NCBI GenBank assembly: GCA_004796365.1
Contig: QZLE01000084.1
Coordinates: 1 to 33,456 of the forward strand
Source: Gammaproteobacteria bacterium
GTDB taxonomy: Bacteria > Pseudomonadota > Gammaproteobacteria > QZLD01
Direction: 5' to 3'
Length of the DNA: 33,456 nucleotides
In this document: piece after piece, positions 20,152-20,262 of the stretch
Numbering within the stretch: the stretch's first letter is position 1
Layout of the letters: each line of letters starts with the position of its first letter
Program-made: the position numbers and the translations under genes
Notes under the pieces: model-generated
The model's input: only the letters and a program-made list of their open reading frames with translations
Database searches by the model: none
Told to the model about the DNA's origin: nothing

Positions 20152-20262
20152 TAAAAAAGGTGGCCTAAGCCACCTTTCCGATTCCCTACCCAAGCATCCT
20201 GCTTGCCCCTCCATCCTGGAGGATCATCATCCTTCCAATCCGTTGTTCCCTTTTTATTCAAA
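20152..20262 (-). ncRNA. Candidate CsrA/RsmA-sequestering small RNA (CsrB/RsmY/RsmZ-like)
   Basis: Minus strand has nine GGA motifs in about 110 nt; two hairpins with AGGAT loops (CAAGC-AGGAT-GCTTG at 20191-20205; CCTCC-AGGAT-GGAGG at 20208-20222); strong terminator at its 3' end; perfect GacA-type UAS upstream. 5' end estimated from a weak TTGCAA-N16-TACTAT promoter. Confidence 0.78.
20153..20177 (-). terminator. Rho-independent terminator of the candidate sRNA
   Basis: Minus strand AAAGGTGGC-TTAG-GCCACCTTTTTT: 9-bp perfect stem, tetraloop, T run. Confidence 0.88.

What the first reader, a model, noticed from the sequence alone, without database searches (positions are those of the whole stretch)
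20152..20262. Unannotated CsrB/RsmY/RsmZ-like sRNA in the fleQ upstream region
Seen directly: the minus strand reads ...GGGAACAACGGATTGGAAGGATGATGATCCTCCAGGATGGAGGGGCAAGCAGGATGCTTGGGTAGGGAATCGGAAAGGTGGCTTAGGCCACCTTTTTT. It has nine GGA motifs, two consecutive hairpins with AGGAT in the loop, and a strong intrinsic terminator. Known: CsrA/RsmA binds (A)GGA exposed in hairpin loops, and Csr/Rsm sRNAs carry arrays of them. Inference: this is a CsrA/RsmA sponge. Its position just upstream of the flagellar master regulator fleQ suggests a local link between Gac/Rsm and motility.
Basis: partly seen in the sequence, partly recalled or inferred. Interest (0 to 1): 0.85.

Follow-up and report, generated by a model that had tools for sequence, protein, structure and literature searches.

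The report
Gac-controlled Rsm-type small RNA beside fleQ
Next to the flagellar master gene fleQ, this uncultured gammaproteobacterium carries a small RNA gene that very probably soaks up the global regulator CsrA when the GacS/GacA sensor system fires; it is a convincing new example of a well-known kind of RNA in an unusual genomic place, not a new mechanism.

Summary
Minus strand about 20266..20151 encodes a roughly 116-nt RNA with nine GGA motifs and a strong intrinsic terminator (fold z = -3.6). It is the densest GGA site in the window. The AGGAU-loop hairpin at 20205..20191 is solid (P 0.99). The one at 20222..20208 competes with another pairing (P 0.24).

Rfam's best hit is PrrB/RsmZ at 28 bits, below its cut-off of 44. 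The rest of the circuit is present: a GacS/BarA orthologue in this window (27854..30625), and GacA and CsrA elsewhere in the genome. Two further GGA-array and terminator loci sit behind near-perfect boxes (C7 and C167). A reversed-box control gave none.

Best reading: one of three Gac-activated, CsrA-sequestering sRNAs (RsmX/Y/Z type) of this MAG. The fleQ-adjacent location was not seen in 18 other FleQ or FleQ-like loci; in the only family-level relative held it could not be tested. A cis link to fleQ is unsupported. New member of a known kind.

The parts
20427..20444 (-). GacA/UvrY/LetA box TGTAAG-AAAATT-CTTACA, perfect palindrome, centred about 170 nt upstream of the predicted sRNA start
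   Evidence: consensus from PMC4950607 and PMC3171408; one of two perfect copies in the 2.77-Mb assembly
20273..20300 (-). Weak putative promoter TTGCAA-N16-TACTAT; start predicted near 20266
   Evidence: read by eye; NOT found by the consensus scan (8 of 12 matches); inference
20151..20266 (-). Rsm-type sRNA, about 116 nt, nine GGA motifs
   Evidence: (RF00166, 28 bits, E = 1.9e-4, matched 20245..20151)
20208..20222 (-). Hairpin CCUCC-AGGAU-GGAGG, in competition with another pairing
   Evidence: P 0.24
20191..20205 (-). Hairpin CAAGC-AGGAU-GCUUG, GGA in loop
   Evidence: P 0.99; GGA unpaired probability 1.0
20154..20179 (-). Intrinsic terminator, 11-bp stem and T-run
18278..19681 (-). fleQ, flagellar master regulator (downstream neighbour; GTG start; AGGGA in the Shine-Dalgarno region)
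27854..30628 (+). gacS/barA/letS orthologue (sCache, HAMP, HisKA, HATPase, REC, Hpt)
   Evidence: NCBIfam BarA E = 1.3e-230, 768 bits (curated cut-off 890), LetS second; Pfam domains

Best explanation
The element is a stand-alone, Gac-activated small RNA of the RsmX/Y/Z (CsrB/C) kind. Phosphorylated GacA, fed by the GacS kinase encoded 7.6 kb away, binds the box at 20444..20427 and activates a weak promoter near 20300..20273. An RNA of about 116 nt is made and stops at the terminator at 20154. Its GGA motifs, one or two of them in hairpin loops and others in single-stranded linkers, bind CsrA dimers and so lift CsrA's hold on its target mRNAs. The genome very probably has two sibling sRNAs (C7:18758-18880 and C167:8558-8404). 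Shown here: sequence, fold, terminator, GacA box, presence of GacS, GacA and CsrA, and the sibling loci. Inferred: transcription, GacA binding and CsrA sequestration.
For: Nine GGA in about 116 nt, the densest GGA site of the window. Fold z = -3.6. Terminator. Best Rfam match of 4227 families is PrrB_RsmZ, E = 1.9e-4 on 801 bp, aligned over the whole model including two CAGGAUG loops; it is also the best RF00166 hit in this genome. Perfect GacA box about 170 nt upstream, comparable with rsmZ at -196 in P. aeruginosa (PMC4950607). GacS orthologue in the window, GacA above NCBI's curated cut-off and next to a uvrC-like frame, CsrA above Pfam's cut-off. Of seven box-like sites with at most one mismatch in the genome, three lead into a GGA array with a terminator. 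Of four reversed-pattern control sites none does: the only one with six GGA lies in a 508-codon open frame and has no terminator.
Against: Below the Rfam gathering score (28 against 44 bits), and RF00166 is noisy at this level: many sub-threshold hits elsewhere are just terminators. No close relative with the locus was available, so there is no covariation or conservation test. The promoter is weak and was not found by the consensus scan. No expression data.
Confidence: 0.93

Rival explanations
1. It is a cis-acting leader: the GGA array is the 5' part of the fleQ transcript, and CsrA binding modulates read-through of the terminator into fleQ.
For: Same strand, 469 nt upstream of fleQ, no gene in between; CsrA is known to act on the fleQ 5'UTR in Legionella (PMC5338858).
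Against: The terminator is strong and no pairing that would undo it appeared in the folds; the 469-nt gap holds a CRP-like site just upstream of fleQ, which suggests a separate promoter; two sibling RNAs with the same box/array/terminator build lie at loci without fleQ.
Confidence: 0.04
2. It encodes a small protein (ORF 20214..20017, 65 aa, or a 14-codon frame within the RNA) and the GGA motifs are ribosome-binding sites.
For: An ATG-started open frame of 65 aa begins inside the array.
Against: The frame runs through the terminator; no Pfam match; it explains neither the nine GGA nor the GacA box.
Confidence: 0.01
3. Chance: a terminator plus a purine-rich intergenic stretch.
For: Against dinucleotide shuffles of itself the GGA count is only p = 0.05; a sub-threshold RF00166 score often reflects a terminator alone.
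Against: Fold z = -3.6, perfect GacA box, full Gac/Csr circuit and two sibling loci of the same build.
Confidence: 0.02

Closest known systems
RsmZ / PrrB of Pseudomonas (Rfam RF00166)
   Same: Length about 116 nt, GGA array with AGGAU hairpin loops, terminator, distant GacA box (about -170 here; -196 in P. aeruginosa, PMC4950607); best Rfam match
   Different: Score 28 against a gathering score of 44; 5' half of the model is largely unmatched; lies beside fleQ. P. aeruginosa rsmZ lies next to rpoS (own knowledge)
RsmY / RsmX of Pseudomonas; RsmY/RsmZ of Legionella
   Same: GacA/LetA box, GGA motifs, several siblings per genome; the two siblings found here have the RsmY-like short box distance
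   Different: No Rfam match at threshold to any of them; no sequence similarity beyond motifs was established
CsrB/CsrC of enterobacteria, CsrB1/B2 of Shewanella, Pf1-3 of Pseudoalteromonas
   Same: UvrY/GacA box TGTAAGN6CTTACA upstream in Shewanella (PMC3171408) and CsrA-binding GGA arrays; Pf3 has nine GGA (PMC11882849)
   Different: CsrB/C and Pf1/Pf2 have more GGA motifs (14-25)

Membership tests
CsrA/RsmA-sequestering sRNA (functional class) | Many GGA motifs, some in hairpin loops | tested here: met
   Nine GGA; one AGGAU loop at P 0.99, one at 0.24; others in linkers
CsrA/RsmA-sequestering sRNA (functional class) | Stand-alone gene with intrinsic terminator | tested here: met
   the start site itself is not shown
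CsrA/RsmA-sequestering sRNA (functional class) | GacA/UvrY box upstream | tested here: met
   Perfect box at 20444..20427
CsrA/RsmA-sequestering sRNA (functional class) | CsrA, GacS and GacA in the same genome | tested here: met
   GacS is below its curated cut-off (768 of 890 bits) but has the full domain set
CsrA/RsmA-sequestering sRNA (functional class) | Binds CsrA and relieves its regulation | not testable with these tools
   needs EMSA, CLIP or reporters
Rfam RF00166 PrrB_RsmZ | Score at or above 44 bits | tested here: not met
   28.0 bits, E = 1.9e-4 on 801 bp; 0 matches at gathering score in the window
Rfam RF00166 PrrB_RsmZ | Neighbourhood of Pseudomonas rsmZ (rpoS) | tested here: not met
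   Here the neighbours are fleQ and a divergent lipoprotein-like ORF; the rpoS location is from own knowledge
cis-acting fleQ leader | Shared transcript with fleQ or a switchable terminator | tested here: inconclusive
   Only a strong terminator was seen; no transcript data

The most novel reading that the evidence does not exclude
The sRNA's place between fleQ and gacS is functional: read-through or local build-up of the GGA array beside the nascent fleQ mRNA shields fleQ from CsrA in cis, coupling Gac output to motility at one locus.
Probability: 0.05. Interest if true: 0.55.

Novelty: new member of a known kind. Interest (0 to 1): 0.3.

Why it matters
It completes a readable Gac/Rsm circuit (GacS, GacA, CsrA and three sRNA loci) in an uncultured gammaproteobacterial lineage with only two genomes of its family among those searched here. 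It also suggests that Rfam's thresholds miss real Rsm RNAs there; GacA box plus GGA array plus terminator recovers all three. The linkage of sRNA, flagellar genes and gacS within about 12 kb is unusual but of unknown meaning.

Tried and rejected
DNA search with the sRNA in 40 genomes: only itself. RF00166 in 40 relatives: mostly terminator-only hits; L009 and L011 look like true Rsm RNAs of other families by GGA count. Two other RF00166 hits in the own genome (C25, C23) are the end of a coding frame and a terminator with hardly any GGA: rejected. Conservation in the family relative G001: its fleQ contig ends 116 nt upstream of fleQ and its aminotransferase has other neighbours, so the location could not be tested; a G001 box at C172 is followed by a modest GGA stretch without a clear terminator. 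In 18 loci around FleQ or FleQ-like matches from other bacteria, no GGA array with a terminator was found on either strand. No covariance model was built: the siblings share motifs, not alignable sequence.

Full report
Observation. It has nine GGA motifs. A 110-nt sliding window peaks at 10 GGA here, while the next best site on either strand of the window has 6. The RNA folds at -39.8 kcal/mol, z = -3.60, with no shuffle of 200 as stable, and ends in an 11-bp terminator with a T-run. GGA count alone is only borderline against dinucleotide shuffles (p = 0.05), so other evidence is needed.

Structure. The hairpin CAAGC-AGGAU-GCUUG (20205..20191) forms with probability 0.99. CCUCC-AGGAU-GGAGG (20222..20208) has 0.24 because its 5' arm can pair with an upstream GGAU; the best structures with and without it differ by 0.2 kcal/mol. 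The 'two AGGAU hairpins' are therefore one firm and one switchable; CsrA binding would be expected to favour the open loop (inference).

Rfam. Nothing in the window reaches a gathering score. At a permissive threshold the best of 4227 families is PrrB_RsmZ, 28.0 bits, E = 1.9e-4, aligned along the full model with both CAGGAUG loops. The same search in 40 relatives gives many sub-threshold hits that are terminators only, so this is a lead and not proof.

Circuit. The consensus is TGTAAG-N6-CTTACA, and in P. aeruginosa it lies at -75 (rsmY) and -196 (rsmZ) (PMC4950607); here it is centred about 170 nt before the predicted start. The window itself encodes the sensor: 27854..30628 matches BarA at E = 1.3e-230, with LetS second, and has sCache, HAMP, HisKA, HATPase, REC and Hpt domains. 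GacA is at C74:15316-15948, above NCBI's cut-off and directly followed by a uvrC-like frame. CsrA is at C110.

Siblings. The genome has seven box-like sites with at most one mismatch. Two besides the window's lead into GGA arrays with hairpins and terminators: C7:18758-18880 (GCACAGGAAGUGC, CCCUUAAGGAUGAGGG, GGCCAGGAGGCC, GUCAGGAAGAC; box at 18677) and C167:8558-8404 (UUGCAGGAAGCAA, GGUUAAGGAUAACC; box at 8633-8616), the latter just upstream of a trpF-like gene. Their boxes lie about 70-80 nt upstream of the arrays, the rsmY distance. Four control sites found with the reversed box pattern lead into no such array: the only one with six GGA is inside a 508-codon frame without a terminator. Box sites with one mismatch occur by chance at nearly this rate (7 against 4), so it is the combination, not the box, that is informative.

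Location. fleQ (PF06490, AAA, Fis) starts 469 nt downstream on the same strand, behind a CRP-like site TGTGATCAATGTCACA (19785..19770). The same array-plus-terminator filter finds nothing in 18 loci around FleQ or FleQ-like matches from other bacteria. A trans link is plausible: CsrA binds the fleQ 5'UTR in Legionella (PMC5338858), and Gac downregulates fleQ through AlgU in P. fluorescens (PMC3282751). The fleQ Shine-Dalgarno region here contains AGGGA, which is suggestive only.

Verdict. The working explanation (0.93) is a Gac-activated, CsrA-sequestering sRNA, one of three in this genome. Sequence, fold, box, terminator, sibling loci and protein partners are shown; transcription and binding are inferred. 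It works like RsmZ; it is not a member of RF00166 by that family's own threshold. It is a new member of a known kind.

Noticed in passing
window 19770..19785 (minus): Perfect CRP/Vfr-type palindrome TGTGA-TCAATG-TCACA about 90 nt upstream of the fleQ start codon; Vfr control of fleQ is known in Pseudomonas (own knowledge).
   Followed up: no
L157 (G000:C7:18758-18880, +): Second Rsm-type sRNA: GacA box with one mismatch, four GGA-loop hairpins, terminator, followed by a gpsA-like gene on the other strand.
   Followed up: partly
L155 (G000:C167:8558-8404, -): Third Rsm-type sRNA: GacA box with one mismatch, GGA hairpins, terminator, upstream of a trpF-like gene.
   Followed up: partly
L006/L159 (G000:C26:67000-67270): GacA-like box (one mismatch) followed by a GGA-rich leader (AGGACACAGGAGAGGACACATGGG) of a 98-aa STAS-like gene next to a protein-kinase-like gene; a candidate direct Gac/CsrA target.
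   Followed up: no
L003 (G000:C64:47198-47215): The only other perfect GacA palindrome of the genome lies between an HU-like gene and an opposite-strand gene, with no GGA array; possible direct GacA target or chance.
   Followed up: no
window 16740..19681: fleQ is followed directly by a fleR-like regulator; no fleS kinase lies between them as it does in Pseudomonas.
   Followed up: no
L136, L120 and L125 (other gammaproteobacteria); L009, L011: GGA-rich arrays near GacA boxes (L136 with a clear terminator) or at RF00166 sub-threshold hits; look like further Rsm RNAs that Rfam's threshold misses.
   Followed up: partly
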